A stretch of 64,000 nt of DNA, from positions 62,001 to 126,000 of the forward strand of contig JAJVII010000006.1 of assembly GCA_022072085.1 (NCBI GenBank), given 5' to 3'. The notes under the pieces were generated by a model that was given only the letters and a program-made list of their open reading frames with translations, ran no database searches and was not told where the DNA came from. The translations under genes were made by a program, and so were the position numbers. The stretch comes from Phycisphaerae bacterium (GTDB taxonomy: Bacteria > Planctomycetota > Phycisphaerae > JAJVII01). This document shows positions 13,088 to 24,121 of the stretch, piece by piece (position 1 is the first letter of the stretch; each line of letters starts with the position of its first letter).

Positions 13088-13115
13088 AGGTCCTATAATA
13101 TATGCTAACTCGTTG
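13088..13115. promoter_or_regulatory. dif-like site 1 (left edge, degenerate)
   Basis: The left arm AGGTCCTATAA resembles a XerC-binding arm and differs by one base from the other two sites. The spacer is TATATG. The right arm CTAACTCGTTG does not match the XerD consensus TTATGTTAA. It is interpreted as a hybrid or phage-derived attachment edge. Confidence 0.5.
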
Positions 13116-13165
13116 ACGTATAACGGGTTACGTAAATTGCGGGCGTCTTGATCGAGCATCGTAAC

Positions 13166-13612
13166 ATGGCGGTCTGGCCAGAGACTCGGGCACTGCTGCG
13201 GGCGGTCAAGGCTCAACTTGGCCGTCCTGGTGACATGGTCCCGGTCATGATGACCAGCCTGCTTCATGTCGCCGTCGAGCGATTGATAGCCGATCTGGAA
13301 GCCGGGGGCAAGCTCGAAGTCCTGGCGGCGGTCAAGCGTCTACGGGTCTACTGCCTGCGGCGGTCGCGTGGCGACGGCGGCGGGTATTGGCGTTCCAGGC
13401 CTCCCGCGTCGATGGTCGAGGCGTCGGGTAGGGTCGTCTCGGATAGCCGGACGCATGGACAGGGGGCCGGGGAGGGGGGCGGGACAACCGCCCCCGCCCC
13501 GGCCTCTGCGTGCGTCGGTGGCCGGGGGGCTCCTAGTAACACCCCCCCCTCTACTCGTAATCGGGATTCCCAGAAAGTCTCTTGCAGTCTCAATAAGTCT
13601 CAGATAGGATAA
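13166..13612 (+). CDS. Small phage/satellite protein, possible ribbon-helix-helix
   Basis: The frame encodes about 148 residues. The first 60 (AVWPETRALLRAVKAQLG..., then SLLHVAVERLIADLE) look like a short DNA-binding ribbon-helix-helix or helical domain. They share a VHVAV-type helix with the gene at 20474. The rest is low-complexity Gly/Ala/Pro/Ser and is encoded across a strong GC hairpin, so the C-terminus may not be a selected protein sequence. A TTG at 13148 is an alternative start. It lies just inside dif-like site 1 and may be a regulator; this is an inference. Confidence 0.45.
   Translation: MAVWPETRALLRAVKAQLGRPGDMVPVMMTSLLHVAVERLIADLEAGGKLEVLAAVKRLRVYCLRRSRGDGGGYWRSRPPASMVEASGRVVSDSRTHGQGAGEGGGTTAPAPASACVGGRGAPSNTPPSTRNRDSQKVSCSLNKSQIG
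13465..13504. repeat. Large GC hairpin inside the satellite segment
   Basis: GGCCGGGG followed by GGGGGCGG pairs with CCGCCCCC followed by CCCCGGCC, about 16 bp with a 1-2-base internal loop and a GACAA apical loop. In a single-stranded DNA element such a hairpin could be an origin or packaging signal. Confidence 0.55.
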
Positions 13613-13618
13613 CCGCCC

Positions 13619-14014
13619 ATGGCAAGCAAGGCGTCCAAGCAAGCCCGCAAACAGCAGCGGCGGCGAGAAGCCGAAGCCCGCTGGCGGCAGGACCGCAATG
13701 CCCCTGGGTCAAAGGTCCAGGCCGGGGGGCCAGTGTCTATCAGCCCCCCCTCAAACGTGAAGCCTTCGGCGGTCCCGGTCCAGGCTCGGCCTGTGCCTGC
13801 GGCCGTCCCTCAGTCGGTCCAGCCGGTGGCGGCACAAGCCGACGTGGTCTTGACCGGCCTGGAAGTGGCCAAGCTGCTCAAGGTGTCGCGGGCGACGTTC
13901 TTTCGCCTGGTCAAAGCCGGGCGTGTGCCTGGTCGAATTGATCTGCCGGGCCTGCCGGTTCGGTATCTGCGGTCGGCGGTGGTGGCGTGGTTGGAAGGGC
14001 ACGCGAAAGCATGA
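13619..14014 (+). CDS. Excisionase-family helix-turn-helix protein
   Basis: The 131-residue protein has a very basic N-terminus (KASKQARKQQRRREAEARWR) and a Pro/Val/Ala-rich linker. Its C-terminal HTH_17/MerR-type domain reads LTGLEVAKLLKVSRATFFRLVKAGRVPGRIDLPG, ending in VVAWLEGHAKA. This domain occurs in excisionases and recombination directionality factors. Lying next to Xer-type sites, it could control XerCD recombination or transcription of the element. The ATG follows AGGA at a rather long spacing. The next gene starts within its stop codon (ATGA). Confidence 0.75.
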   Translation: MASKASKQARKQQRRREAEARWRQDRNAPGSKVQAGGPVSISPPSNVKPSAVPVQARPVPAAVPQSVQPVAAQADVVLTGLEVAKLLKVSRATFFRLVKAGRVPGRIDLPGLPVRYLRSAVVAWLEGHAKA

Positions 14015-14265
14015 CGCGACTGGGGAACATCCTGGCCAACGTCGAGCCGCTGGTAACAGGGGGCACCGCATGTAACAGGACGCTCCCGGCCCGCACGCCG
14101 GGGCCGTCCCAAAGGCCCCCGCGTGGCGGGCGGGCCGGGTGCAGCAGCGGCCTGTTAGATGCGGGGGTTCCTGTTAGCAGCGGCGGCTCGACTCGTCGAG
14201 GCGTCCCGCTGGTCGAAGGGCTCTTAGACGCTCTGCTGTCCATCGTGGAGCGACGCAGGCGGTGA
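14011..14265 (+). CDS. Small protein of unknown function
   Basis: An ATG overlapping the stop of the HTH gene opens an 84-residue frame beginning MTRLGNILANVEPLVTGG. The sequence is Gly/Arg/Pro-rich and resembles no family I know. Translational coupling by the ATGA overlap is the main evidence that it is real. It ends about 80 bp before dif-like site 2. Confidence 0.4.
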   Translation: MTRLGNILANVEPLVTGGTACNRTLPARTPGPSQRPPRGGRAGCSSGLLDAGVPVSSGGSTRRGVPLVEGLLDALLSIVERRRR

Positions 14266-14346
14266 GGCCGGGCAAGTGGAGTCTTGCCATTCGGTCGGGG
14301 CTGTGGTAACTGAAACCGTATCGGCCTTTTTGTTCTGCCCCGCAAA

Positions 14347-14374
14347 AGGTCCGATAATGTATGTAAAGTATTAT
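14347..14374. promoter_or_regulatory. dif-like site 2 (left attachment site of the inovirus)
   Basis: The XerC-type arm AGGTCCGATAA and spacer TGTATG are identical to those of the site at 22164 (17 bp shared). The right arm TAAAGTATTAT is a poor XerD match. A good left arm with a degenerate right arm is what XerC-first phage integration at dif leaves at the upstream edge. Confidence 0.72.
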
Positions 14375-14426
14375 GCAACAAGGACTTACAGCAAATCGGG
14401 GTTTCTGAACTGACATTCAAATAGCT

Positions 14427-14456
14427 GCGGCCCGCGTGGTGGTTCACGCGAGCCGC
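14427..14456. repeat. Hairpin, candidate packaging signal or origin
   Basis: GCGGC and CGCGTG pair with CACGCG and GCCGC, with a single C/A mismatch and a GTGGTT loop. It is the strongest hairpin in the first 100 bases after the attachment site. Confidence 0.5.
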
Positions 14457-14596
14457 TTACCACCGACAAGGAAAAGGCTTGCCAGTGGCGGATTCCAGGA
14501 TAGACGCGGTAGGTTCGGCGGTCAATACCTATCTACGGTATGGCTGCGGGCCTGCGGTCTTTCGGCGTCCCGCCCGGCGTAGTCAGTCGGTGGCAC

Positions 14597-14636
14597 AAGC
14601 CCGGTCTGTTTCCCCCACAGGCCGGGCTTTTCTTTT
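14597..14636 (+). terminator. Rho-independent terminator in the phage intergenic region
   Basis: AAGCCCGGTCTG pairs with CAGGCCGGGCTT with one internal mismatch around a short C-rich loop, followed by TTCTTTTG. It would insulate the pV-coat operon from transcription entering through the attachment site. Confidence 0.75.
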
Positions 14637-14704
14637 GTCTACGTCGCGGCCGTGTGGCTGCGATTCCTCAAGTGCCGCGTCTGCGGCGGAAAGTGAAGTG
14701 TCTC

Positions 14705-14983
14705 ATGCTCGGGCTGACCAATCCGTCGGGTGACGTGCAGGTGATGCGCGTCTACGTGAACAAGGGAACCTCGAAGAAGACGGGTGCGGCGTATGAAATG
14801 CCGCGCGTCGTCGTGGGGGGCGTCGGGCAATACTTCGAGTTGAACGTCGATGACGTGGTCTTCGAGCAGGCCAAGCCCTTCGAGGGCAAGGTCGCCCACG
14901 TCGTGGTGGAGATTCGGCGGCGGGGTTACTCGAACGACCTGGTTCTCGTCTCCATCGGCCCGGCGAAGAACGGGAAGGCGTGA
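14705..14983 (+). CDS. pV-like single-stranded DNA-binding protein (putative)
   Basis: The 92-residue product has the size of filamentous phage gene V proteins and occupies their position, between Rep (across the circle) and the small coat genes. Its core RVYVNKGTSKKTGAAYEMPRVVVGGVGQYFELNVDD followed by VAHVVVEIRRRG, then LVLVSIGPAK, resembles the M13 pV pattern of TRSGVSRQGKPY to the terminal RLRLVPAK. The role would be coating the (+) strand before assembly. ATG 14705 is chosen; ATG 14744 is an alternative. The assignment rests on size, position and loose similarity. Confidence 0.6.
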   Translation: MLGLTNPSGDVQVMRVYVNKGTSKKTGAAYEMPRVVVGGVGQYFELNVDDVVFEQAKPFEGKVAHVVVEIRRRGYSNDLVLVSIGPAKNGKA

Positions 14984-14986
14984 GCC

Positions 14987-15139
14987 GTGGATTACGTGAC
15001 GACTGAACATGTCGCGGAGTGGCTAGCGGGCTCCTGGGTCGTCGGGATTCTGTTCGGCTTCGGCACGTGCGCGGGGGCGAGCATCGGTATGCAGTTGCTG
15101 CGGCTGGTGCGGGCGTGGGTTCGGTCTTTTCATCCGTGA
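14987..15139 (+). CDS. Small membrane protein, pVII/pIX-like (50 aa)
   Basis: A GTG start three bases after the pV stop opens a 50-residue frame. It has a single membrane segment, GSWVVGILFGFGTCAGASIGM, an acidic N-terminus (DYVTTEHVAE) and a basic C-terminus (RLVRAWVRSF). In filamentous phages two such short proteins cap the end of the virion that emerges first. Its place between pV and pVIII matches the gVII-gIX position. Confidence 0.6.
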   Translation: MDYVTTEHVAEWLAGSWVVGILFGFGTCAGASIGMQLLRLVRAWVRSFHP

Positions 15140-15208
15140 CAGCGGCGGTGTTCGTCGCGGCGGGTGGTGTCTCTGAGTGGGCCAGTAGGCCCGGAAGGTT
15201 GGTGTCTC

Positions 15209-15526
15209 ATGCGTTTCACGGGTAAGGTCTGCAATGCGGTGGCGGCTTTCACGGTGGCGACCTGGTCGAAGACCCGGCGTCTCGTCCAGTCGGCGGCGTT
15301 CCGCACGTTCGCGGTCGTTGGCGGCGTGGTCAGCTTCCTGAGCTACGGCCTGCGGTCGGCCAAGGCTGACCCGGCTCCCGTCGATATCACGCTTCCCTTC
15401 GACGTGGCGGGGACGGTGACCCTGCTCCTGGTCGTGATCGGCGTCTTGGTCGTCGGGGCTGCGACCATCGGCCTGACGTGGTACTTCGGCGGCAAGGCGT
15501 GGAAGGCGCTGAAGGGTCGCGCCTAG
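15209..15526 (+). CDS. Major coat protein, pVIII-like
   Basis: The 105-residue precursor starts after GGAAGG. It has a long signal peptide whose likely cleavage is after SAKA (residue 53). The 52-residue mature form has the coat-protein pattern: an acidic N-terminus (DPAPVDITLPFD), a hydrophobic span (TVTLLLVVIGVLVVGAATIGL) and a basic C-terminus (GGKAWKALKGRA) facing the DNA. Thousands of copies would form the filament. Size and order match gene VIII. Confidence 0.82.
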   Translation: MRFTGKVCNAVAAFTVATWSKTRRLVQSAAFRTFAVVGGVVSFLSYGLRSAKADPAPVDITLPFDVAGTVTLLLVVIGVLVVGAATIGLTWYFGGKAWKALKGRA

Positions 15527-15601
15527 TCGTCGCGGGCGTAGGTCAGCCGTGGGGCGGTGCTTGTGGCCGCCCTGCGGCTGGCCGTGTTGTGGGAGTGAAT
15601 C

Positions 15602-15730
15602 ATGCCAGAACTCACCTACTTCCAGGCCCTCGGAATCGTGCTGTATCTGTTCACGACCGGGGTGTCGTTTGGAGCCAAGCTATGGGGCGTCATTCAAGAT
15701 TCTGCGTCGCGGTCCTGGTTGTCGCCTTGA
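15602..15730 (+). CDS. Small membrane protein of the inovirus (42 aa)
   Basis: The ATG six bases after GGGAG opens a 42-residue frame. It has one membrane segment (ALGIVLYLFTTGVSFGAKLWGVI) and overlaps the start of the adsorption gene by 49 bp in another frame. It may be a minor coat protein. Its ribosome site and overlap make it likely to be translated. Confidence 0.55.
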   Translation: MPELTYFQALGIVLYLFTTGVSFGAKLWGVIQDSASRSWLSP

Positions 15731-17046
15731 GTGTGTGCGCTGCGTCGGCCGATGAAGTGGCCGAGTTGCAGGTGATTCAGCAGCAGCTTGACGCGTTGCC
15801 GGGCAACGTGAAGGCGCAGTTTCAGACCTGGTGCGATACGGTTGAGCAGCGTCTGTCAGGTGTCGAGGGCAAGCTCGATACGGCGAACACGGCGTTGGCT
15901 GCGATTCAGTCGAACACGGGCAGTATGGCGGGTGGGGTTGCTGAGATTGTCACGTCTACGGGGTCGATGGCGGCTGAATTGGATGGGGCGGCGGTGAAGC
16001 TGACCGCGATCAAGGACGCTCTGTATCAATACGGGGTGTCGATTGCGTCTTATAACTGGACGATGGATTCTCACATCAACACGATGAATACGACATTGTC
16101 GTCAATTAACAATGCGTTGACGTTATTGAACACTAACACGACGACGATTAAGAACAATTCGGGGACGGCTAATACGCATTTGAGCACGATCAAGACGGAA
16201 ACGCAGGGTGTGCATGTGGACACTACGGCGATGAAGTCCACGTTTAATGAGGCCCTTGAGCAAGTGACGGCGATTCGGTCGGCTCAAGACGAAATGAATT
16301 TGAAGTATGACATTGTCCAGCAGAACGGGACGGATACGAATGCCAAGCTGGACACGGCCAATGAGAACCTGGAAGGCATATCGTCGGCAACGCAGGGCGT
16401 GCTTGGAGCGATTCAGGATTTGACGAATGCGGTGGGTGGGGCTCCTGGTGCGTTGTCTGAGAAGCTTCAGGGCGTGATTGACGCGGTAGAAAACGTGAAG
16501 AACGCCGTGGACCTACAGAACGCCTTGAGCGAGCAATATCATGGTGACGATCAGGCGGCGCAGGCGCAGGAACAAGCGACGTTGGAACAGGTGCGGCAAG
16601 AGTTGGGGGAGTTGAAATTGAGCTTCGAGGAATTGAAGACGGAGTTGGGCGAAGATATGCCGGGGGGCGAGATTCCCGGTTATGCCGATGAGCCGGGGGA
16701 AGAATTCGAAGGGCCGGTGTTGGAGGATGGGACGCCTAACCCGACGCCTCCGTCCTCGACGTTGGGGCCGGGTATGGATGAGCCTCCTTTCCCGCAGCCT
16801 CCGCAACAGTCGTGGAGCTTTGACCAGGCGGACCCGGGGCCTCCTGAGTGGGAATGGAAGCTCCCGTTGGCGTGGATAGGGCAGAGTCCTATCGGGTCGA
16901 AGTTGGGCATTACGACACATGACTACATCATCCCCATTACGTGGGGGTGGTATACGCCGCTTCGGGCGTTCGTGCATCCGATTCTTCTGATCTTCACGAC
17001 CCTGTGGGCTGCTCACCGTGTCTTTGACGAATTCCGGGCCATGTAA
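15682..17046 (+). CDS. Adsorption / minor coat protein, pIII-like
   Basis: The 454-residue protein has a signal peptide cleaved after CAASA (residue 23) and a C-terminal membrane anchor (residues about 430-448, FVHPILLIFTTLWAAH). This is the pIII topology for host attachment and filament release. Residues of about 25-320 form a long Thr/Asn/Ser-rich coiled coil with repeated ..LDTANTAL.., ..LTAIKDAL.., ..LSTIKTET.. units. These are unlike the N1/N2 domains of coliphages and closer to fibre stalks. A Pro/Glu-rich linker covers about 325-390. The ATG follows GGAG. Receptor specificity cannot be inferred. Codon use is less GC-rich here than in flanking chromosome genes. Confidence 0.8.
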   Translation: MGRHSRFCVAVLVVALSVCAASADEVAELQVIQQQLDALPGNVKAQFQTWCDTVEQRLSGVEGKLDTANTALAAIQSNTGSMAGGVAEIVTSTGSMAAELDGAAVKLTAIKDALYQYGVSIASYNWTMDSHINTMNTTLSSINNALTLLNTNTTTIKNNSGTANTHLSTIKTETQGVHVDTTAMKSTFNEALEQVTAIRSAQDEMNLKYDIVQQNGTDTNAKLDTANENLEGISSATQGVLGAIQDLTNAVGGAPGALSEKLQGVIDAVENVKNAVDLQNALSEQYHGDDQAAQAQEQATLEQVRQELGELKLSFEELKTELGEDMPGGEIPGYADEPGEEFEGPVLEDGTPNPTPPSSTLGPGMDEPPFPQPPQQSWSFDQADPGPPEWEWKLPLAWIGQSPIGSKLGITTHDYIIPITWGWYTPLRAFVHPILLIFTTLWAAHRVFDEFRAM

Positions 17047-17060
17047 TTCGAGGGCGTGCC

Positions 17061-17495
17061 ATGAAAAAGTGGATAGCTGCGCCGTTCATTTGGTTTTGGG
17101 GCCAGATTTCCGACCTGCTCGGGAAGCTGTGGCACACGTTCACCGAGTGGATGCAGGGGATTGTCAACTGGTGGTGGCAGGCGTTCGTCTGGCTGTATCA
17201 TCAGTTCCTGGATTTCCTCAAGACGATGGGTCAAGCCATCGTGGACGCGGTGACGTGGGACCTTCAATACATCTGGAACAAGGTTGTTGCCCTGGCTGCG
17301 GCCCACGGCATTGATATCAGTCTCGGGGGCCTGCCGGACGCGGTGCAAAGCCTGTGGGGGGTTGTGCAGGATATGGCCTGGATTCTGCCGTTGGGGGCGA
17401 TGTTCTCAATCATCGTGTCGGCCTGGGCTGCGGTCCTCGTTATTCGCATCACGCGTCACGCGATGCGGCTTATCCCCTTCCTGAATGCGGGGTGA
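17061..17495 (+). CDS. Minor coat protein, pVI-like
   Basis: The 144-residue membrane protein starts MKKWIAAPFIWFWGQI, has a Trp-rich amphipathic middle and two C-terminal hydrophobic spans (WILPLGAMFSIIVSAWAAVLVI). pVI works with pIII at the terminating end of the filament. It lies 14 bp after pIII and 3 bp before pI, exactly the gene III-VI-I order of known filamentous phages. Confidence 0.72.
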   Translation: MKKWIAAPFIWFWGQISDLLGKLWHTFTEWMQGIVNWWWQAFVWLYHQFLDFLKTMGQAIVDAVTWDLQYIWNKVVALAAAHGIDISLGGLPDAVQSLWGVVQDMAWILPLGAMFSIIVSAWAAVLVIRITRHAMRLIPFLNAG

Positions 17496-17498
17496 CGC

Positions 17499-18920
17499 AT
17501 GGGGCGCAAGCTGACCAGGCCCCTTCCGTCGGGAATCATCATTGTGCACGGTCAGCCCGGAGCGGGTAAGAGCTACTGGGCTGTGAGTGAAATCATCGAC
17601 ATGATTCTTCTGCACGGTCGGCCCGTGTGGACGAATCTCCCGTTGAAGCTTCGGACGTTTCAAGCCTACTTGAAGCTTAAAGGCCGGTCGGCTGATTGGG
17701 CTCGCTACATTCGCATCTTGACGGTGGACCATTTCACGGCGTTCGTGAAGCGGCTTGAACGCATTGACAAGCTGACGCAGCGGATTCTAAAGAAGCGGCT
17801 CGGTGGCGGCGATGTGACGAAGGTCGAAGAAGAATTGTTGCGCGGGGCTCGGGCAACGGCCGTGCGAATCATTGACCGGAACGACCCTCCTCAAATCACG
17901 GGCTCGAAGGCGAATCATATTCCGGGCGGTGCGGTCCTGGTCATAGATGAGCTTCACAAGTGGTATCCGGGTTACAGGGTGGCGGGGGGGAGGGCAGGGG
18001 ACGAACCTCCCGAAGTGCTGGCGTATACCTCGATGCATCGGCATTTAATGCATCGAATCTATTGCCTGACACAGGACGCGAAGAATGTGTCTCTGAGCTT
18101 CCGGTCGATGGCAATGGAATACATTTTTGGGCGGGACATTTCTCAGCAGCGGTTTTTCTTCGGCTTCAAGTTCCCGTTGAAGTGCTTTAACTATGCGTGC
18201 TTCAATGCTCTCGATGTGCGCGAGTGCGTGCCGCGGCCCGGGGCTCGGCCGACGTATGAGAAGGCGTTGATTCCGTCCTTCGAGGGCTGGGTCTTCTATC
18301 GGCTGTATGAGTCCTACACGCACGGCGGCGGCGTGGACGCGGTGCGGCGGGAGCTTGACGCTACGCTGGACAAGCTCGGTGTTGAGGGGGAGAGAAAGAA
18401 GGTGCATCACGTGAAGACACGCAAGGGGCCAGGTCGTAGGGTCTTCGGTTGGGTCCGTCGTCGGCTGTGGCGGGCTACTGTCCTGGGCGTGGTGTTCTAC
18501 CTGGGCTTCAAGGCTGCGGGGGCGGGGCGTAGGTCCTCGGGTCCGTCGGAGGCTGCGGGGCCAGTGGCGGCGGCTCCGGCGCCGGCGGCTGTGCCGGCGG
18601 TGGGGGCGGCGGTGGTGAAGGTTGGGCCAGAATTTCGGTTGCGTGGGGTGACTCCGGGCGGTGTGTTCATCGAGGGGAAATTTATCTCTGTGGGAGAAAA
18701 GTATCATGGTGCAGAATTGGTTTACTGTGACCCGGCTCAAGGGTCTGCTACGTTTCACGTGGTGGACGTGCTTTACGTTACTTGCTCTATGGATTATGCA
18801 CCTACTCCAAGGGTGCTCAGCGAGTTGGACGGCTCTCGAATTCCAGAGCGACTTAAAGCCTGTCGGGGCGAGCTTGCCAGGCTTGCAGCGTTTGCGAAAC
18901 ATCGAGACAAAGGGCGTTGA
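17499..18920 (+). CDS. Zot-like assembly ATPase, pI family
   Basis: This inner-membrane motor drives filament extrusion. The 473-residue protein carries a Walker A at residues 18-25 (GQPGAGKS) and a Walker B near 143-150 (GGAVLVIDELHKWYP), both diagnostic of the Zot/pI family. A membrane segment lies near 325-340 (TVLGVVFYLGF). The following Ala/Pro-rich periplasmic part would contact the secretin. The last 215 bp are read in two frames because the secretin gene starts inside it. The start directly follows pVI. Confidence 0.9.
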   Translation: MGRKLTRPLPSGIIIVHGQPGAGKSYWAVSEIIDMILLHGRPVWTNLPLKLRTFQAYLKLKGRSADWARYIRILTVDHFTAFVKRLERIDKLTQRILKKRLGGGDVTKVEEELLRGARATAVRIIDRNDPPQITGSKANHIPGGAVLVIDELHKWYPGYRVAGGRAGDEPPEVLAYTSMHRHLMHRIYCLTQDAKNVSLSFRSMAMEYIFGRDISQQRFFFGFKFPLKCFNYACFNALDVRECVPRPGARPTYEKALIPSFEGWVFYRLYESYTHGGGVDAVRRELDATLDKLGVEGERKKVHHVKTRKGPGRRVFGWVRRRLWRATVLGVVFYLGFKAAGAGRRSSGPSEAAGPVAAAPAPAAVPAVGAAVVKVGPEFRLRGVTPGGVFIEGKFISVGEKYHGAELVYCDPAQGSATFHVVDVLYVTCSMDYAPTPRVLSELDGSRIPERLKACRGELARLAAFAKHRDKGR

Positions 18921-20115
18921 CTATGGTCCCGAAATTCTTGTTGTCGGGCGGTTTCACGGGTCCTTCAATGAAATGCAGACCTGGTGTCGGGGGTTCGGCG
19001 TCGTCGTGTTGGTTGCAACGAAGTGGAAGGACATTGATAAAGCGGTGTTCTCTATCGATCTGCCGGGCCCGGTCGCGGCGGGGCAGGCATTGCAGACTAT
19101 CGCGGCGCAGTTCCCGGAGCGGGCGGAAGTCATTAGACGGGCTCCGGCTGTTTATCTTGTGGGGGATCCTGACGCATCGGACCTGGTGAGCCGTGTCTAT
19201 CACGTCTCGGGCGTGAAGGCCGAGGACTACAACGCGGCTCTAATGACGATCATTTCGCGTTACGGCCGTGTCGGGCATGTGGGGGATGTCCTGGTCGTGA
19301 CTGACACGCGCGAAGCGATAGAACGCATTGACGCTTTGTTTGCGGGCATTGTGGGGGGGCGGGGGCAGTTCATCATTGAATGCCGGGTCGTCGAAGTCTC
19401 GGAAGAAGCTGCCAGGTCGTTCGGCCTGGACGTGTCGGACGCGTCACTGGTCAAGCTCGGGTTCACGGTCGGCCTGGACAATCCAGGGGGTCGGACGCAT
19501 CAGCTTTCAGGGCTGGCCGATGTGCAATTGGCGGCGTTGTGGGATTCCTCGGAAACGGGTTCGTCGGTTCGTCTGGTCAACATGGTTCAGTTGCTGGTGA
19601 CGGAAGGGGCGGAAGGGGAATTGCAAGTCGGTGACACGATTCCTTACCGGCGGAAGGCGTTGACTGAATCGGGTGCGGTGGCCGACACGTCTATTGAGTG
19701 GCTGGATGTGGGTGTCCTGCTGTGGGCGTCTGTGCGAAGCGAGCCGGAGGGGCGGCTACGTGTGCGCATGCGGCCTGAGTTGTCGGTCATATCCGGGTAT
19801 CTCGATGGGTTGCCTGTTCGAGCTCGGCGGCGGCTCTCCTCGGAAGTGGTGGTAGAGCCGGGGTCGATCTGGCTGGCCGGGGGGTTCACGTTGGAGTCTG
19901 ACGATAGCGGCAACAAGGGGCTGGCGTTCGTCTCCGGTGTTCCTGGGGCCTCGGTGCGGTCGGGGGGGCGAAAGCGGCGTCACGTGTTCATGTTCTGCCG
20001 GATAGTTGACCCGATGGGCGAGGACTTGGGTGTAGGTCCTCCGGGCGCAGGACCTCCGCGCTTGTCGGTGGTGGGTGTCAGTCCGACCAGTCAACCAGAT
20101 GTAAGCGGTAACTAA
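18706..20115 (+). CDS. Phage secretin, pIV-like lipoprotein
   Basis: The 469-residue product would form the outer-membrane channel through which filaments leave. It has a long lipoprotein signal ending LLQGC (Cys37) and an N-domain with YLVGDPDASDLVSRVYHVSGV and VTDTREAIERIDALF. The secretin core carries FIIECRVVEVSEEAARSFGLD, QVGDTIPYRRKA, IEWLDVGVLLWASV, and a terminal EPGSIWLAGGF of the VPXLXXIPXXGXLF type. Many inoviruses borrow a host secretin; this one brings its own. The ATG is 9 bases after GGGAG and lies 215 bp inside the Zot gene. Confidence 0.88.
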   Translation: MVQNWFTVTRLKGLLRFTWWTCFTLLALWIMHLLQGCSASWTALEFQSDLKPVGASLPGLQRLRNIETKGVDYGPEILVVGRFHGSFNEMQTWCRGFGVVVLVATKWKDIDKAVFSIDLPGPVAAGQALQTIAAQFPERAEVIRRAPAVYLVGDPDASDLVSRVYHVSGVKAEDYNAALMTIISRYGRVGHVGDVLVVTDTREAIERIDALFAGIVGGRGQFIIECRVVEVSEEAARSFGLDVSDASLVKLGFTVGLDNPGGRTHQLSGLADVQLAALWDSSETGSSVRLVNMVQLLVTEGAEGELQVGDTIPYRRKALTESGAVADTSIEWLDVGVLLWASVRSEPEGRLRVRMRPELSVISGYLDGLPVRARRRLSSEVVVEPGSIWLAGGFTLESDDSGNKGLAFVSGVPGASVRSGGRKRRHVFMFCRIVDPMGEDLGVGPPGAGPPRLSVVGVSPTSQPDVSGN

Positions 20116-20157
20116 CATGGTGGGTGAGGGTTTGGGGGAATTGTAGGGAGCGACAGA

Positions 20158-20210
20158 ATTACGGTAAATTTGTGTTGACATTACGGTAAATGATGGTAGG
20201 ATTACGGTAA
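20158..20210 (+). promoter_or_regulatory. Promoter with three operator repeats upstream of the rep operon
   Basis: ATTACGGTAA occurs at 20158, 20180 and 20201, spaced 22 and 21 bp, so all three lie on the same DNA face. Each contains the 9-bp palindrome TTACGGTAA. TTGACA (20175-20180) and TAGGAT (20197-20202), 16 bp apart, form a sigma-70 promoter overlapped by repeats two and three. Repression of rep by a small phage regulator is inferred. Confidence 0.75.
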
Positions 20211-20250
20211 TGGCCGTATGGTGCGGCCGGTTCTTACTGTGAGGTGCGTT

Positions 20251-20484
20251 ATGGTGGTAACTTCGTGGGTTCCGGGGTATCGGAGTCGGGGGAAGCAATT
20301 ATTTGCGGGTGCTCAGACTGGTGGGGGGATGTCGTGGTCGGACGGGGTGGTGTCTGAGGTGCGAATGTCGTTTGTTGGGCAGGACGGGCGGGAGTATTGC
20401 TTAGCGTTTAGCGGGGAAGAAGCGTTTCGGGTGGGGGCTGAGTTGCAGCGTATGTCGCGGGGGGGGGTGGCAGATGCCTCCTAA
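20251..20484 (+). CDS. Small phage protein of unknown function
   Basis: The ATG six bases after GAGG opens a 77-residue frame. It ends in a beta-hairpin-like stretch (SEVRMSFVGQDGREYCLAF, then GEEAFRVGAELQRM). It is first in the rep operon, directly after the operator-promoter, and overlaps the next gene by 11 bp. A regulatory role is possible from position; no family is recognised. Confidence 0.6.
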   Translation: MVVTSWVPGYRSRGKQLFAGAQTGGGMSWSDGVVSEVRMSFVGQDGREYCLAFSGEEAFRVGAELQRMSRGGVADAS

Positions 20485-20767
20485 GGGTTTTGTTTCGGTG
20501 ACATTGCCAGTGGTGACTATGGAAGCAATTGAGGAGTTTCGGGGGTTGTTAGTGCGCCGGGAGCGGGTGCGGGGTTGTTTGGGTGGGGCGCGTAGTGTTG
20601 GGCCTGAGTATTACGTGCAAGCGTCCGTGGCGGTGCTTGTGCATGTGGCGGTGGTCCTCGGGGGGGAGTGGCTGACAGAAATTATTGAGCGGGTGACGGA
20701 TTCGGGGGCTGCCGGGGTGTTGCGTGGTGGCAGTGAGTCGGATGAGGCAAGTCAAGGTAAGGAGTGA
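20474..20767 (+). CDS. Small phage protein, possible regulator
   Basis: The 97-residue product begins MPPKGFVSVTLPVVTMEAIEEF, reminiscent of a beta strand plus helices in ribbon-helix-helix repressors. It continues VQASVAVLVHVAVVLGGEWLTEIIERV. A similar VHVAV helix occurs in the satellite gene at 13166. It is coupled to the upstream gene by overlap and ends just before the rep start. It is a candidate binder of the TTACGGTAA operators; this is a hypothesis. Confidence 0.55.
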   Translation: MPPKGFVSVTLPVVTMEAIEEFRGLLVRRERVRGCLGGARSVGPEYYVQASVAVLVHVAVVLGGEWLTEIIERVTDSGAAGVLRGGSESDEASQGKE

Positions 20768-20772
20768 CTAAC

Positions 20773-22011
20773 ATGGGTTGGGATTCTATAGAAGCGGTTG
20801 TGCGTGCTGACCTGGAAGCGCGGGGGGAGGGGCTCCCCTCCCGGCGCAGCCGGGGGGGGACCCCTCCCAGGTCCTCTATAGGGAGAGACTCTATATGGGG
20901 AGTAGGGGCCTTGGCTACATCGCATATCCGGCCGGGGCAAGCGACAGCGGCCCGGGCGGGTTTGCACTCGGGGACGGTGACTTGGTATCGGGGGGGGTCT
21001 TACCTGTCTCTGCAAGGTTCGGTTCATGTGGCTGCTGACGATTCTCCTCGGGGCGTGCATGTGTCGCCTCATGGGTCTGTGCCGGTTCGTCGGGGCGGTG
21101 GGCTTCGGGGTGACGTGACGACATTTTCGGCCGAGAGTCGGAACCGTATGATTCGGCGGCTGGTGTCTGTCGATCGGGGTGGAGTCGCGCCGGGGTCGGT
21201 ACTTTTCGTGACCCTGACGTATCCTGCGGCGTTCGAGGGTGACCCGGCGGCGTGGAAAGCTGACCTGGCTGCGTGGCGGCGGCGTCTAGAGCGTCGTCAC
21301 GGGAAGCGGGCGGTGTTCTGGAAGCTTGAGCCGCAAGAGCGTCAGGCCCCGCACTTTCATCTTCTGGTGTTCGGGCTCGACTTCTCCGACACGGTCGGGG
21401 GCTGTTGGGAGTTCGGTCAGTGGGTAGCGTCTTCCTGGCACGACTTGGTGGGCCGGGGCGACGACGATCATTTGCGGCATGGCTCGGACGTTCAGCCGGT
21501 GGAGTCGTGGGAAGGTGTGATGAGCTACGCCGCGAAGTATCTCGGGAAAGAAGTGCCGGGTTTCGTGGACGTGGACACGGGGGAATTGAAGGCCTCGGGC
21601 CGGTGGTGGGGTGTGTGGCGTGGTGAGCTATTGCCACGTGTCCAGGTAGTCGCTAGAGTCGAGCCGGTCGCGTTGGTGCGTGTTCGGCGTGCTGCTCGCA
21701 AGCTCGTTGAACGTCAGCGGGGCAAGCGGGCCTCCTGGCTGCGTGGGCGTGTCGTCGGGCGGTCATTCGTGATTGTCCCGGAAGCGGTCGTGGCGGCTCT
21801 GGTGGACTACTACGCGCCGGGGGCCGTCGCACGTTCGGCCGACCTCATTGGAGCGTCCAGGCGGAGCGCAGCGAAGCCTATGGGACGTGTGAAGCGGGCC
21901 GGGTCTTCGTCCATGGGTGATTGCTCCGGCTGTGACAGCAAGCGGCGGGGTAGCCCGTCGGAGACAAGTCTGTGGAGTTCTGACGTAAGGGGTGCATGCC
22001 GTGTATGGTGA
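20773..22011 (+). CDS. Rolling-circle replication initiator (HUH endonuclease)
   Basis: The 412-residue protein has the three motifs of HUH Rep proteins in order. Motif 1 is LFVTLTYP near residue 145, motif 2 is the metal-binding PHFHLLVFG with His194 and His196, and motif 3 is SYAAKYLGKE with candidate nucleophile tyrosines 252 and 256 (YxxxY with Lys255). It would nick the (+) origin and start rolling-circle replication. AAGGAG precedes the ATG. The first 50 codons run through a cluster of strong GC hairpins and are Arg/Gly/Ser-rich, as if the DNA structure, not the protein, were selected there. Confidence 0.88.
   Translation: MGWDSIEAVVRADLEARGEGLPSRRSRGGTPPRSSIGRDSIWGVGALATSHIRPGQATAARAGLHSGTVTWYRGGSYLSLQGSVHVAADDSPRGVHVSPHGSVPVRRGGGLRGDVTTFSAESRNRMIRRLVSVDRGGVAPGSVLFVTLTYPAAFEGDPAAWKADLAAWRRRLERRHGKRAVFWKLEPQERQAPHFHLLVFGLDFSDTVGGCWEFGQWVASSWHDLVGRGDDDHLRHGSDVQPVESWEGVMSYAAKYLGKEVPGFVDVDTGELKASGRWWGVWRGELLPRVQVVARVEPVALVRVRRAARKLVERQRGKRASWLRGRVVGRSFVIVPEAVVAALVDYYAPGAVARSADLIGASRRSAAKPMGRVKRAGSSSMGDCSGCDSKRRGSPSETSLWSSDVRGACRVW
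20822..20868. repeat. Overlapping GC hairpins in the 5' part of rep
   Basis: GGGAGGGG (20825) pairs with CCCCTCCC (20835-20842). The alternative CCCTCCCGGC (20836-20845) pairs with GCCGGGGGGG (20849-20858). A distal CCCCTCCC at about 20861 can also pair with the first G-run. Shortly downstream CTCTATAGGGAGAG and CTCTATATGGGGAG form a direct repeat. This is a candidate Rep nick region. Confidence 0.55.
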
Positions 22012-22117
22012 TTGGTTCATCGGGTTTCTGGTCGGGTTGGGGACCGGGGCGCTTGCCGTTGGCCTCTTTGGGTGGCTGGTCGTTATCGGACGCGAAATTA
22101 AAGGCCCCTATAGGTAG
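22001..22117 (+). CDS. Small membrane protein of the inovirus (38 aa)
   Basis: A GTG start preceded by AAGGGG overlaps the end of rep by 11 bp and opens a 38-residue frame. It is nearly all one membrane segment (DWFIGFLVGLGTGALAVGLFGWLVVIG) with a basic tail (REIKG). It matches pVII/pIX-type cap proteins in size and hydropathy and is the last gene before the right attachment site. Confidence 0.55.
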   Translation: MYGDWFIGFLVGLGTGALAVGLFGWLVVIGREIKGPYR

Positions 22118-22163
22118 AATTTTCCTTGCGTTCTGGCGCAACATCTTGTATGATTGGGGCTGT

Positions 22164-22191
22164 AGGTCCGATAATGTATGTTATGTTGCAT
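22164..22191. promoter_or_regulatory. dif site (right edge of the prophage, both arms intact)
   Basis: The site consists of XerC arm AGGTCCGATAA, 6-bp spacer TGTATG and XerD arm TTATGTTGCAT. E. coli dif has GGTGCGCATAA, TGTATA and TTATGTTAAAT, so both arms and the spacer fit the bacterial consensus closely. Integration at dif regenerates a functional dif on one side of the phage, and this would be it. It shares 17 bp with the site at 14347. Confidence 0.82.
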
Positions 22192-22376: not shown

Positions 22377-23555
22377 TCACGCCATCCGCTGCAACGCCAG
22401 CAGGCCGATCTGGCCGCCGAACCCCATGCTCGTGCAGAGCGCCGATCGCAGGTCGGCCGGCATCGGACGGTCGGTCAGCCGAACGCGGCAGTCGTCGTCG
22501 GCCTGTTCGGTCGTGCTCGCGGTCGGCGGATGGATGCCGTGACGCAGCGACTGGATCGCGACGATGGCTTCGGTCAGCCCGGCGGCGCCCAACAGATGGC
22601 CGACGACCGACTTGGCGGCCGTCACCCGCGGGTCGGCGCCGGCGAACGCGGCGGCGACGGCGGCTGACTCCTGGCGGTCGTTGCTCGGGGTTCCGGTTCC
22701 GTGGGCGCAGTAGAGATCGACATGCTCCGGCCGCCAGGCGGCCCGCGACAGCAGCGCCGACAGCAGCCTGGCCAACGTGCGGCCTTGGGGGTCCTGGGCG
22801 GTGAGTCCCGTGGGATCGGCGCCGATCAGCCAGGCCGAGAGTTCCACGAGCGGCCGTCCGACGGCGACGTCGGCTCGCTCGATCGTCACGGCGACGGCGC
22901 CCTCGGCCAGCACGAAGCCGTCGCGGCGTCGGTCGAACGGCCGGCAGCGGTCGGCGGTGAGCACGCCCATGCTGGCGAACGCGCCCAGCAGCAGCGGCAT
23001 GACCGAAGCGTCCGCAACCGTGACCAGCGCCCGGCTGACCTGGCCGTCGCGGATCATCTGGGCCGCCCGGATGAGCGCGTGTGTGCCGGTGGCGCAGGCG
23101 GCGACGGAATTGACCGCCGGTCCGCCGATGCCCAGCCGCCGGCGCAGCAGCGTTCCCGGCGCGCTGGGCCAGGCCAGCGACAAGCCTCCGGGCTCGCCGT
23201 CAAACAACCGATGCAGGTCGCCCTTGCTGGTGGCGGCGGCGGTGCCGGTGGCGGCGTCGGACAGAATTTCACGGGTCCAGCCGGCCTGCCCGATCGCTTC
23301 GGCGCAGGCGACGGCCATCATGGCGGCGCAGCGCGACCGGGCCAGCGACGGATCGTCGTTGGCGACGCGGGCGATGGCGGCTTCGACGGCCGGCGGCACG
23401 ACTCCGGCCTGGGGCGAAGGCAGCCCGGCGTACCGGGGGTCGGTCAGCGGCTTGGCGAACGGCTGGGCCTTCAGGATGCCCCGCCACAGGGCCTCGACGC
23501 CCAGGCCGGCCGGCGTAACGGACCCGCAACCCGTGATGACGATTCGCGATTCCAT
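22377..23555 (-). CDS. Beta-ketoacyl-ACP synthase (KAS II-like)
   Basis: The 392-residue thiolase-fold protein condenses acyl chains with malonyl-ACP. The catalytic triad is visible: Cys in VNSVAACATGTHAL, His in CAHGTGTPSND and His in KSVVGHLLGAAG. The ATG at 23555 gives the usual MESRIVITGCGSVTPAG start; a longer frame to 23693 is rejected because it lacks family similarity. It stands alone without other fab genes. A role in a special lipid or polyketide rather than bulk fatty-acid synthesis is possible. Its 3' end borders the mobile region. Confidence 0.85.
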   Translation of the reverse strand: MESRIVITGCGSVTPAGLGVEALWRGILKAQPFAKPLTDPRYAGLPSPQAGVVPPAVEAAIARVANDDPSLARSRCAAMMAVACAEAIGQAGWTREILSDAATGTAAATSKGDLHRLFDGEPGGLSLAWPSAPGTLLRRRLGIGGPAVNSVAACATGTHALIRAAQMIRDGQVSRALVTVADASVMPLLLGAFASMGVLTADRCRPFDRRRDGFVLAEGAVAVTIERADVAVGRPLVELSAWLIGADPTGLTAQDPQGRTLARLLSALLSRAAWRPEHVDLYCAHGTGTPSNDRQESAAVAAAFAGADPRVTAAKSVVGHLLGAAGLTEAIVAIQSLRHGIHPPTASTTEQADDDCRVRLTDRPMPADLRSALCTSMGFGGQIGLLALQRMA

Positions 23556-23650
23556 GCGGAGGTAGCTTAGCAATTGGCGCGGCGGTGAGAAGAGGCATCC
23601 GGCCGCGGGTGCGACATGCAATTGCGAGCGTGCCGCCCTATAATGCCCGC

Positions 23651-24121
23651 ATGAGCGAACTGCACCCGACCAACCAGGCGTTGCTCGTGGCACTGGACAA
23701 CCAGGCGGCCCGGACCCGACATGCGCTGGCGGACCTGCCGCAGGCGATCTACGAGGCCGCCCCCGGCGGCGACTGCAATTCGATCCGCAAGATCGGCGAG
23801 CACCTGCTCAAGCTGCGGCAGTTCCAGCTCAAGCTGCTGGAGTCGCCGCTGGCAGCCGACGTGCCGCCGCTTGACGAGGCGGCCACCCCTGCCCGACTGA
23901 CGGCGGCGCTGGACAAGGGCGAGGCCCTCGTGCGCGAGGCGATCGCCGGGCACGACCCAGCCGACTGGCATCGCACGCCGCCGGCGCCCCGCGAGGGGCC
24001 GTGGGGCGGTGAGCCGACGATCCGGCGGCTGATCCGCCCGCTGAACGATTTCACCAATCACATCGGCGGGATCCGGGCGATCCGCCGAATCCTCGGCTCG
24101 CCGGCCGAGAAGACGCAATGA
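23651..24121 (+). CDS. DinB-like four-helix protein (putative)
   Basis: The 156-residue, largely helical protein has [20 protein letters not shown], like the first metal-histidine helix of the DinB/YfiT superfamily, and ends [16 protein letters not shown] with a second histidine region. Many family members are metal-dependent transferases acting on thiols. It is divergent from the synthase gene, and its stop overlaps a possible upstream ATG of bioB, so it may be cotranscribed with bioB. The function is not determined. Confidence 0.5.

What the first reader, a model, noticed from the sequence alone, without database searches (positions are those of the whole stretch)
14347..22191. Complete filamentous (inovirus-type) prophage in a planctomycete-like chromosome
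One strand encodes a pV-like protein, three tiny single-helix proteins, pVIII-like coat, pIII-like, pVI-like, Zot/pI with Walker A and B, a pIV-like lipoprotein secretin and an HUH Rep. This is the classical gene order, and all frames appear open. The seen facts are motifs, order and absence of an integrase. Classical inoviruses are best known from proteobacteria; a planctomycete host, with its unusual envelope, would be notable. That the host is a planctomycete is inferred from flanking genes.
Basis: partly seen in the sequence, partly recalled or inferred. Interest (0 to 1): 0.85.

Follow-up and report, generated by a model that had tools for sequence, protein, structure and literature searches.

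The report
Filamentous-phage prophage at planctomycete dif site
A complete-looking filamentous phage genome sits in a planctomycete chromosome at what looks like the site where the cell separates its replicated chromosomes, apparently put there by the host's own recombination enzymes; the phage is a new member of a known group, and its position shows what this site probably looks like in these bacteria.

Summary
In detail: 14347-22191 is an intact-looking 7.8-kb inovirus-type prophage (Zot/pI, pIV-like secretin, HUH Rep, pVIII-, pIII- and pVI-like genes, strong strand skew), in the circular gene order of Ff phages. Its ends are dif-like sites. The right end is the host's only match to a dif pattern found in 75 of 120 genomes of the class (reversed control: 3); a same-family genome has the site beside the same gene without the phage, as far as its contig reaches. 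No integrase was found; the host has XerC and XerD. So it most likely entered through host XerCD, with an attP like TLCphi's. The host shares its class with named Phycisphaerae (Planctomycetota). Relatives keep the order coat, pIII, pVI, Zot, secretin; 7 loci (window included) have dif-like ends and no integrase found, 3 others carry integrases. Secretins have a lipobox-like motif in 11 of 11 examined (M13, fs2: 0 of 2). An older dif-flanked 1.26-kb segment lies upstream. Inoviruses are already reported from nearly all phyla: a new lineage of a known kind. Wider interest: a Phycisphaerae dif, which a 2011 survey could not predict in Planctomycetes, and two mirror-image att designs. Activity is untested.

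The parts
13088..13115 (+). older dif-like left junction (AGGTCCTATAA TATATG CTAACTCGTTG): XerC arm good, XerD arm degenerate
   Evidence: repeat family D3
13116..14346 (+). 1.26-kb older dif-flanked segment (remnant or satellite) with a 148-aa ORF (13166-13612) and an excisionase-type HTH_17 ORF (13619-14014)
   Evidence: HTH_17 2.4e-8; no convincing family for the other ORF
14347..14374 (+). attL: XerC arm and centre identical to attR, XerD arm degenerate (6 of 11 bases as in attR)
14597..14629 (+). terminator-like hairpin, 13-pair stem, between att and pV-like gene
   Evidence: 11 terminator-like sites found against 8.2 in shuffles, so weak by count
14744..14983 (+). pV/RstB-like small protein (79 aa), putative ssDNA-binding; identification weak
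   Evidence: PHROG RstB 0.0026; proteins at the same place in 5 relatives, 21-28% identity; model pLDDT 48
14987..15139 (+). 50-aa protein with one hydrophobic stretch
15209..15526 (+). pVIII-like major coat precursor: signal-like part ending AKA, acidic start, hydrophobic stretch, basic end
   Evidence: sequence; no profile match
15602..15730 (+). 42-aa hydrophobic protein
15682..17046 (+). pIII-like minor coat (signal-like start, C-terminal hydrophobic anchor ending EFRAM)
   Evidence: 12 C-termini compared
17061..17495 (+). pVI-like protein; conserved hydrophobic C-terminus
   Evidence: alignment of 7
17499..18920 (+). Zot/pI assembly ATPase (Walker A GQPGAGKS, Walker B VLVIDE)
18706..20115 (+). 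pIV-like secretin with lipobox-like LLQGC, overlapping the Zot 3' end
20159..20210 (+). three perfect TTACGGTAA palindromes over the best promoter-like site of the region (TTGACA-16-TAGGAT, 20175-20202): probable operator
20218..20484 (+). 88-aa protein x, no family
20474..20767 (+). 97-aa protein y, no family; model poor
20764..22011 (+). HUH rolling-circle replication initiator
   Evidence: PF23343 1.1e-12
21992..22117 (+). 41-aa hydrophobic protein
22164..22191 (+). attR = complete host dif (AGGTCCGATAA TGTATG TTATGTTGCAT)
22377..23693 (-). host beta-ketoacyl-ACP synthase gene that also borders dif in G009 (flank, not phage)

Best explanation
A temperate filamentous phage (inovirus type, order Tubulavirales) of Phycisphaerae. 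Its ssDNA circle is turned into a double-stranded 7.8-kb form replicated by the HUH Rep; on that circle the att site lies between Rep and the pV-like gene. Host XerC and XerD recombine the phage site (good XerC arm and centre, degenerate XerD arm) with the chromosomal dif, so that a complete dif is rebuilt at the downstream end and a half site stays upstream. Later arrivals can use the rebuilt dif, giving tandem arrays; the 1.26-kb segment upstream is the trace of an earlier event. Virions would be assembled by Zot/pI and leave through the phage's own, probably lipid-anchored, secretin. Expression of x, y and Rep is probably switched at a promoter covered by three TTACGGTAA palindromes. Shown: gene content, att sites, class-wide dif pattern, empty-site neighbour, host XerC/D genes. 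Inferred: activity, route and order of strand exchange (TLCphi-like), lipidation, repression.
For: Profiles. Skew. The right site is the window's best match to E. coli dif, 20 of 28; the left site is next with 17, and unrelated sites reach 16. Class pattern in 75 of 120 genomes, once in 73 of them, reversed pattern in 3 of 120; in G000 only at attR. G009, same family: 28 bp at 92.9% identity to the site, beside the same beta-ketoacyl synthase gene (54% over 398 aa), no phage match on the contig. XerC TIGR02224 357.3 bits over 335.15, XerD TIGR02225 330.7 over 329.6 in G000. Six relatives' loci with the same kind of ends and no integrase found; three others with an integrase beside the phage, two of them in one-contig genomes and far from dif. 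TLCphi attP described in PMC4246890 (passages). Operator and promoter.
Against: No virions, circular form or reads were available; IMG/VR scans with the window's Zot, Rep and secretin found no relative. attL still has 6 of 11 bases of the attR XerD arm, and a VGJphi-type XerC-only route is not excluded. G009's contig shows only about 560 bp left of its dif, and a BioB-family match beyond the synthase gene is inverted and only 35% identical. The synthase gene was beside dif in 4 of 19 loci looked at, G009 included. Skew tests of dif as terminus were uninformative in three genomes. The shuffle test with the class pattern (25 of 25 against at most 19 in 40 shuffles) is biased, since the pattern was drawn partly from this site. 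The pV model failed. The window's lipobox has Q at -2 and was missed by my pattern.
Confidence: 0.88

Rival explanations
1. A defective or domesticated inovirus: genes open, but it no longer excises or makes virions, because attL lacks a good XerD arm.
For: attL XerD arm degenerate; no free relative in IMG/VR with single-protein queries; an older partial segment lies beside it.
Against: The major genes are open, and skew and GC (0.604 against about 0.67) are still phage-like; TLCphi integration is called reversible with the same kind of site (PMC4246890 passages).
Confidence: 0.25
2. CTXphi-type integration of ssDNA through a folded attP(+) rather than of double-stranded DNA.
For: Host-Xer use and absence of integrase are shared with CTXphi.
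Against: CTXphi attP(+) needs two inverted att sequences about 90 bp apart (PMC4246890 passages). The 25 longest of 31 inverted repeats and the ten best dif-like matches on both strands show none beside the att sites.
Confidence: 0.1
3. A cell-encoded secretion island or plasmid segment that happens to carry Zot and secretin genes.
For: The secretin also resembles GspD (8.4e-13) and PilQ (5.5e-7), far below their cut-offs.
Against: Best secretin match is phage pIV (9.7e-18); no Zot match in 72,556 plasmid records at E<=0.01; coat-like gene, Rep and att ends; patchy presence (7 of 397 class genomes by the single protein, own included).
Confidence: 0.03

Closest known systems
TLCphi of Vibrio cholerae
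   Same: Host XerC/D and dif; attP with good XerC arm and centre, degenerate XerD arm (PMC4246890 passages).
   Different: Host phylum; this element has its own Zot, secretin and Rep; strand-exchange order untested here.
CTXphi and VGJphi of Vibrio
   Same: Use of host Xer at dif; Zot in CTXphi (recalled).
   Different: CTXphi uses a folded ssDNA attP(+); VGJphi's centre differs from dif on the XerD side. By recall CTXphi borrows the host secretin; this phage encodes one.
Ff phages (M13) and Vibrio phage fs2
   Same: Circular gene order (Ff, recalled); pIV-like secretin (fs2 secretin 23.3% over 60% of the query, E 3e-7).
   Different: M13 and fs2 secretins show no lipobox by my pattern; Ff does not integrate (recalled).
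Filamentous phage WC36-1 of Lentisphaerae
   Same: Same superphylum; filaments seen by TEM (PMC11361711 passages).
   Different: Zot similarity only over 42 residues at E 0.5; a passage seems to place it outside the host chromosome.
Inovirus-like sequences of Roux et al. 2019
   Same: Same supergroup; nearly all bacterial phyla (abstract).
   Different: Main text has no Planctomyc-, dif site or XerC; supplements not readable here, so overlap with this lineage is unknown.

Membership tests
Tubulavirales / inovirus-type phage | Zot/pI assembly ATPase | tested here: met
   PF05707 1.8e-15, phrog_197 1.8e-23
Tubulavirales / inovirus-type phage | rolling-circle replication initiator | tested here: met
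   PF23343 1.1e-12
Tubulavirales / inovirus-type phage | short helical major coat protein with signal peptide | tested here: inconclusive
   Topology and place fit; no profile match
Tubulavirales / inovirus-type phage | ssDNA genome in a filament, released without lysis | not testable with these tools
   Length 7.8 kb and strand skew agree; no particles
Inoviridae (family level) | phylogenetic placement within the family | not tested
   The tree holds planctomycete Zot proteins only, without outgroup
Integrative elements exploiting Xer (IMEX) | insertion at chromosomal dif | tested here: met
   terminus position not shown
Integrative elements exploiting Xer (IMEX) | no own integrase; host encodes XerC and XerD | tested here: met
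Integrative elements exploiting Xer (IMEX) | integration catalysed by XerC/XerD | not testable with these tools
   needs a recombination assay
TLCphi-type attP | XerC arm and centre as in dif, XerD arm degenerate | tested here: met
   attL against attR: XerC arm 11 of 11, centre 6 of 6, XerD arm 6 of 11
TLCphi-type attP | XerD-first, reversible recombination | not testable with these tools
   needs a recombination assay

The most novel reading that the evidence does not exclude
Phycisphaerae have a standard XerC/XerD-dif system whose dif (about KCCGATAA-TNNNNG-TTATGTTRNAT) had escaped prediction, and an inovirus lineage so far seen only in planctomycetes has evolved two mirror-image ways to use it: attP with a good XerC arm (window, L018, L021, L049) and attP with a good XerD arm but no XerC arm (L047, L048, G272), always rebuilding the better dif at the downstream end of the phage; the same lineage leaves through secretins that carry their own lipid anchor.
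Probability: 0.55. Interest if true: 0.68.

Novelty: new member of a known kind. Interest (0 to 1): 0.55.

Why it matters
It ties a complete filamentous prophage to a planctomycete chromosome with host flanks, not just to a loose contig. The phage marks what is probably the chromosomal dif of Phycisphaerae: a 2011 survey reports that dif prediction failed in Planctomycetes (0 of 1 genome; PMC3025954, passages), so chromosome dimer resolution in a group known for FtsZ-less division (recalled) becomes directly testable. A conserved lipobox on the exit channel suggests how the secretin might reach the outer membrane without a separate pilot. The 28-bp sites could also serve for site-specific vectors in bacteria with few genetic tools.

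Tried and rejected
Single-protein scans of IMG/VR with Zot, Rep and secretin and a first genome-contig scan gave no relatives; the profile of 7 Zot proteins did. GC-skew sampling to show that dif lies at the terminus: G192 (20 samples), G142 (20) and G031 (40) gave no clear two-arm pattern; for G031 90 of 200 permutations were as good. It is not used as support. AlphaFold models of the pV-like protein (mean pLDDT 48.0) and of protein y (49.1) were too poor for a fold search. The HTH ORF of the 1.26-kb segment has only generic helix-turn-helix relatives (17 of 120 genomes, own included; best other 5.8e-7), so I cannot name that segment; its weak MADS1 matches (the NCBIfam one far below cut-off) were rejected. 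Of the 21 of 397 genomes with a profile match, 7 had E below 1e-50 (8 matches), the same 7 as; the other 14 were partial or weak and were not counted as phages. In the tree the IMG/VR row L052 dropped out because my reading frame was wrong; L044 and L022 were not put in (cut off or truncated). Their secretins were not examined for a lipobox either.
Full report
Observation. The + strand from 14347 to 22191 holds, in order, an att site, a pV/RstB-like gene, a 50-aa protein, a pVIII-like coat precursor, a 42-aa protein, a pIII-like gene, a pVI-like gene, Zot/pI, a secretin overlapping the Zot end, two small genes x and y, an HUH Rep, a 41-aa protein and a second att site. Zot, secretin and Rep match Pfam and PHROG profiles of filamentous phages well. 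The segment has GC 0.604 and GC skew +0.224; the flanks have GC about 0.67 and skew near zero. On the circle Rep is followed by pV, small protein, VIII, III, VI, I and IV, which is the Ff order (recalled). Names other than Zot, secretin and Rep rest on place, size, topology and synteny.

Ends. Written as XerC arm, centre, XerD arm: 13088 AGGTCCTATAA TATATG CTAACTCGTTG; 14347 AGGTCCGATAA TGTATG TAAAGTATTAT; 22164 AGGTCCGATAA TGTATG TTATGTTGCAT. In the held genome of 5.49 Mb a pattern for XerC arm and centre matches without mismatch only at these three places; one further site has 2 mismatches, and the backward control has one match. The 22164 site is the window's best match to E. coli dif (20 of 28), 14347 the next (17); unrelated sites reach 16.

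It is probably the host's dif. The pattern KCCGATAATNNNNGTTATGTTRNAT, up to 2 mismatches, occurs in 75 of 120 genomes of the class, once in 73 of them (G005 has two, G061 three), against 3 of 120 for the backward pattern; in the window's genome it occurs only at 22167. The pattern was drawn from the window and relatives first, so the 45 genomes without a match say that it is too narrow or that dif lies in a gap. In G009, the only genome of the same family seen in that search, the site lies beside the same beta-ketoacyl synthase gene that borders the window's right end (54% over 398 aa); further on a BioB-family match (35%) is inverted relative to the window, and the start of window gene 26227 (59% over 93 aa) keeps its direction; about 560 bp of contig are seen on the other side and hold no phage match. 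Of 19 dif loci with flanks of up to 1.5 kb, 4 show this gene, G009 and three of one other family (L027, L028, L029). A 2011 survey reports failure of dif prediction in Planctomycetes, 0 of 1 genome (PMC3025954, passages). Two searches for a later planctomycete dif (5 papers, 4 listed; 39 papers, 10 listed) showed nothing plainly about it by title and abstract start; subscription journals are mostly not held. Skew sampling could not place dif at the terminus.

Integration. The element has no tyrosine recombinase by tblastn with host XerC and XerD and two phage integrases; the same queries find those of two control loci, one of them partly by itself (L016 is also a query). The Pfam integrase family gives 9 matches in the host genome, none on this contig; two of them are XerC and XerD over their curated cut-offs. 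The left site keeps XerC arm and centre and 6 of 11 bases of the XerD arm. A review describes TLCphi's attP in these terms, with XerD-first, reversible exchange; VGJphi and CTXphi differ (PMC4246890, passages). A TLCphi-like route is therefore my most likely reading, by inference.

Relatives. With the window's Zot 7 of 397 class genomes match, the window's own included. With a profile of 7 Zot proteins 21 of 397 match, but only the same 7 genomes (8 matches) with E below 1e-50. Across the phylum 8 of 392 match; the strong ones are the window, G130, G142 and one outside the class, G588. All 9 loci found in named genomes come from records titled Planctomycetota, Planctomycetes or Phycisphaer-; candidates there were limited to two peptide patterns, so kin elsewhere may be missed. 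Contig lengths identify L043 with G299, L045 with G130, L046 with G272 and L050 (CP087563.1) with G142, all 'same class' as the window's genome; this names the host's class as that of the Phycisphaerae.

Two att designs. Sites were read in seven loci. Window, L018, L021 and L049 keep the XerC arm and centre at both ends; L047, L048 and G272 keep the XerD arm at both ends and lose the XerC arm upstream. In all seven the downstream site is the better dif: mismatches to the class pattern downstream are 0 (window), 4 (L018), 4 (L021), 3 (L049), 3 (L048), 3 (L047) and 0 (G272); upstream they are 4 and 7 (window), 8, 7, 5, 5, 6, and 5 to 7 (G272). So only window and G272 fit the class pattern closely; G272's site is identical over 25 bases to the dif of G003, of the same genus by the tool's labels. 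For the other five the reading as dif rests on paired repeats at both ends of the phage. G272 carries two phages in tandem with a 1.5-kb dif-flanked cargo between them. None of the seven loci shows an integrase by tblastn; a genome-wide Pfam search has no match on the phage contigs of G130, G067 and G272, while for L047-L049 contig numbers were not matched. G299, G192 and G142 have an integrase gene beside the phage; in the one-contig genomes G192 and G142 the phage lies far from the dif match (305,958 against 1,501,610; 5,153,218 against 238,679). L044 and L051 could not be assigned. On a Zot tree of 11 rows the XerD-arm loci fall together (98/96, with L051 inside) and the XerC-arm loci need two changes; the window has a long branch, highest identity 33% (L049). 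The passages of the review that I saw name three classes of attP, none without a XerC arm.

Modules. Rep is exchanged among relatives: PF23343 in window and L018, PF02486 in L016, L021 and both G272 phages, PF01446 in L017. The C-termini of 12 pIII-like proteins share a hydrophobic stretch with a short charged end, and 7 pVI-like proteins share a C-terminal pattern. Secretins: 11 examined. Nine show a hydrophobic stretch ending in a lipobox-like xxGC by pattern, L049 by eye (LLGC), and the window by eye (LLQGC, missed by the pattern because of Q at -2). In several the motif lies inside the longest ORF, so a later start is assumed. M13 and fs2 have none by the pattern (0 of 2). Two controls are few, and the second look by eye was not given to them beyond their first 60 residues.

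Regulation. Three perfect TTACGGTAA palindromes at 20159, 20181 and 20202 are the only ones in 64 kb (0 of 100 shuffles had three); the best promoter-like site of the region, 10 of 12 with TG before the second hexamer, runs from 20175 to 20202 among them (6 promoter-like sites against 1.9 in shuffles). This looks like an operator for x, y and Rep. The binding protein is not known.

Older segment. From 13088 to 14346 lies a further dif-flanked stretch with an excisionase-type HTH gene and an orphan ORF. If each arrival uses the better dif downstream, elements further upstream are older; this one would be a remnant or a satellite. Its centre TATATG equals that of G009's dif while the phage's sites have TGTATG, which fits a centre changed by the later phage, but one base is little to build on.

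Literature on planctomycete inoviruses. Searches: 2 papers; 7; 1; 56, 20 listed; 5, 4 listed; 18. By titles and abstract starts none describes a planctomycete filamentous phage. Papers opened for passages: PMC11361711 (Lentisphaerae), PMC10945688 (Phage-ZRK32 of a planctomycete, 21.9 kb, hexagonal particles, so not this kind), PMC6813254, PMC3025954, PMC4246890. Several listed papers that hold both words were not opened.

Verdict. The finding is right: a complete-looking inovirus-type prophage in a planctomycete. As a phage it is a new, divergent member of a known kind, since inoviruses are reported from nearly all phyla (PMC6813254, abstract). What raises it is the probable Phycisphaerae dif and the two att designs. 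Activity is unproven.

Noticed in passing
L019+L020 (G272), oriented with Zot on +, 14839-16365: A 1.5-kb segment between two tandem inoviruses is bounded by dif half sites and carries one 428-aa ORF that by eye looks like a signalling protein: a dif-flanked module without phage genes.
   Followed up: partly
L047:9815-10831 and L048:7787-8785: A gene with a SIR2-like FGAGTS start lies after the secretin inside two of the phages; possible defence cargo. Read by eye, no profile run.
   Followed up: no
L022 / L050 (CP087563.1, about 5.15 Mb): Second pieces of integrase and secretin lie beside a phage whose Zot is cut to 153 aa: a decaying pair.
   Followed up: no
window 13116-14346: Small dif-flanked segment with an HTH_17 gene; origin unknown.
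   Followed up: partly
L137 (G588:C230:3136-4350): A strong Zot relative (4e-74) in a planctomycete of another class.
   Followed up: no
L027, L028, L029: In one other family of the class dif also lies beside the beta-ketoacyl synthase gene.
   Followed up: partly
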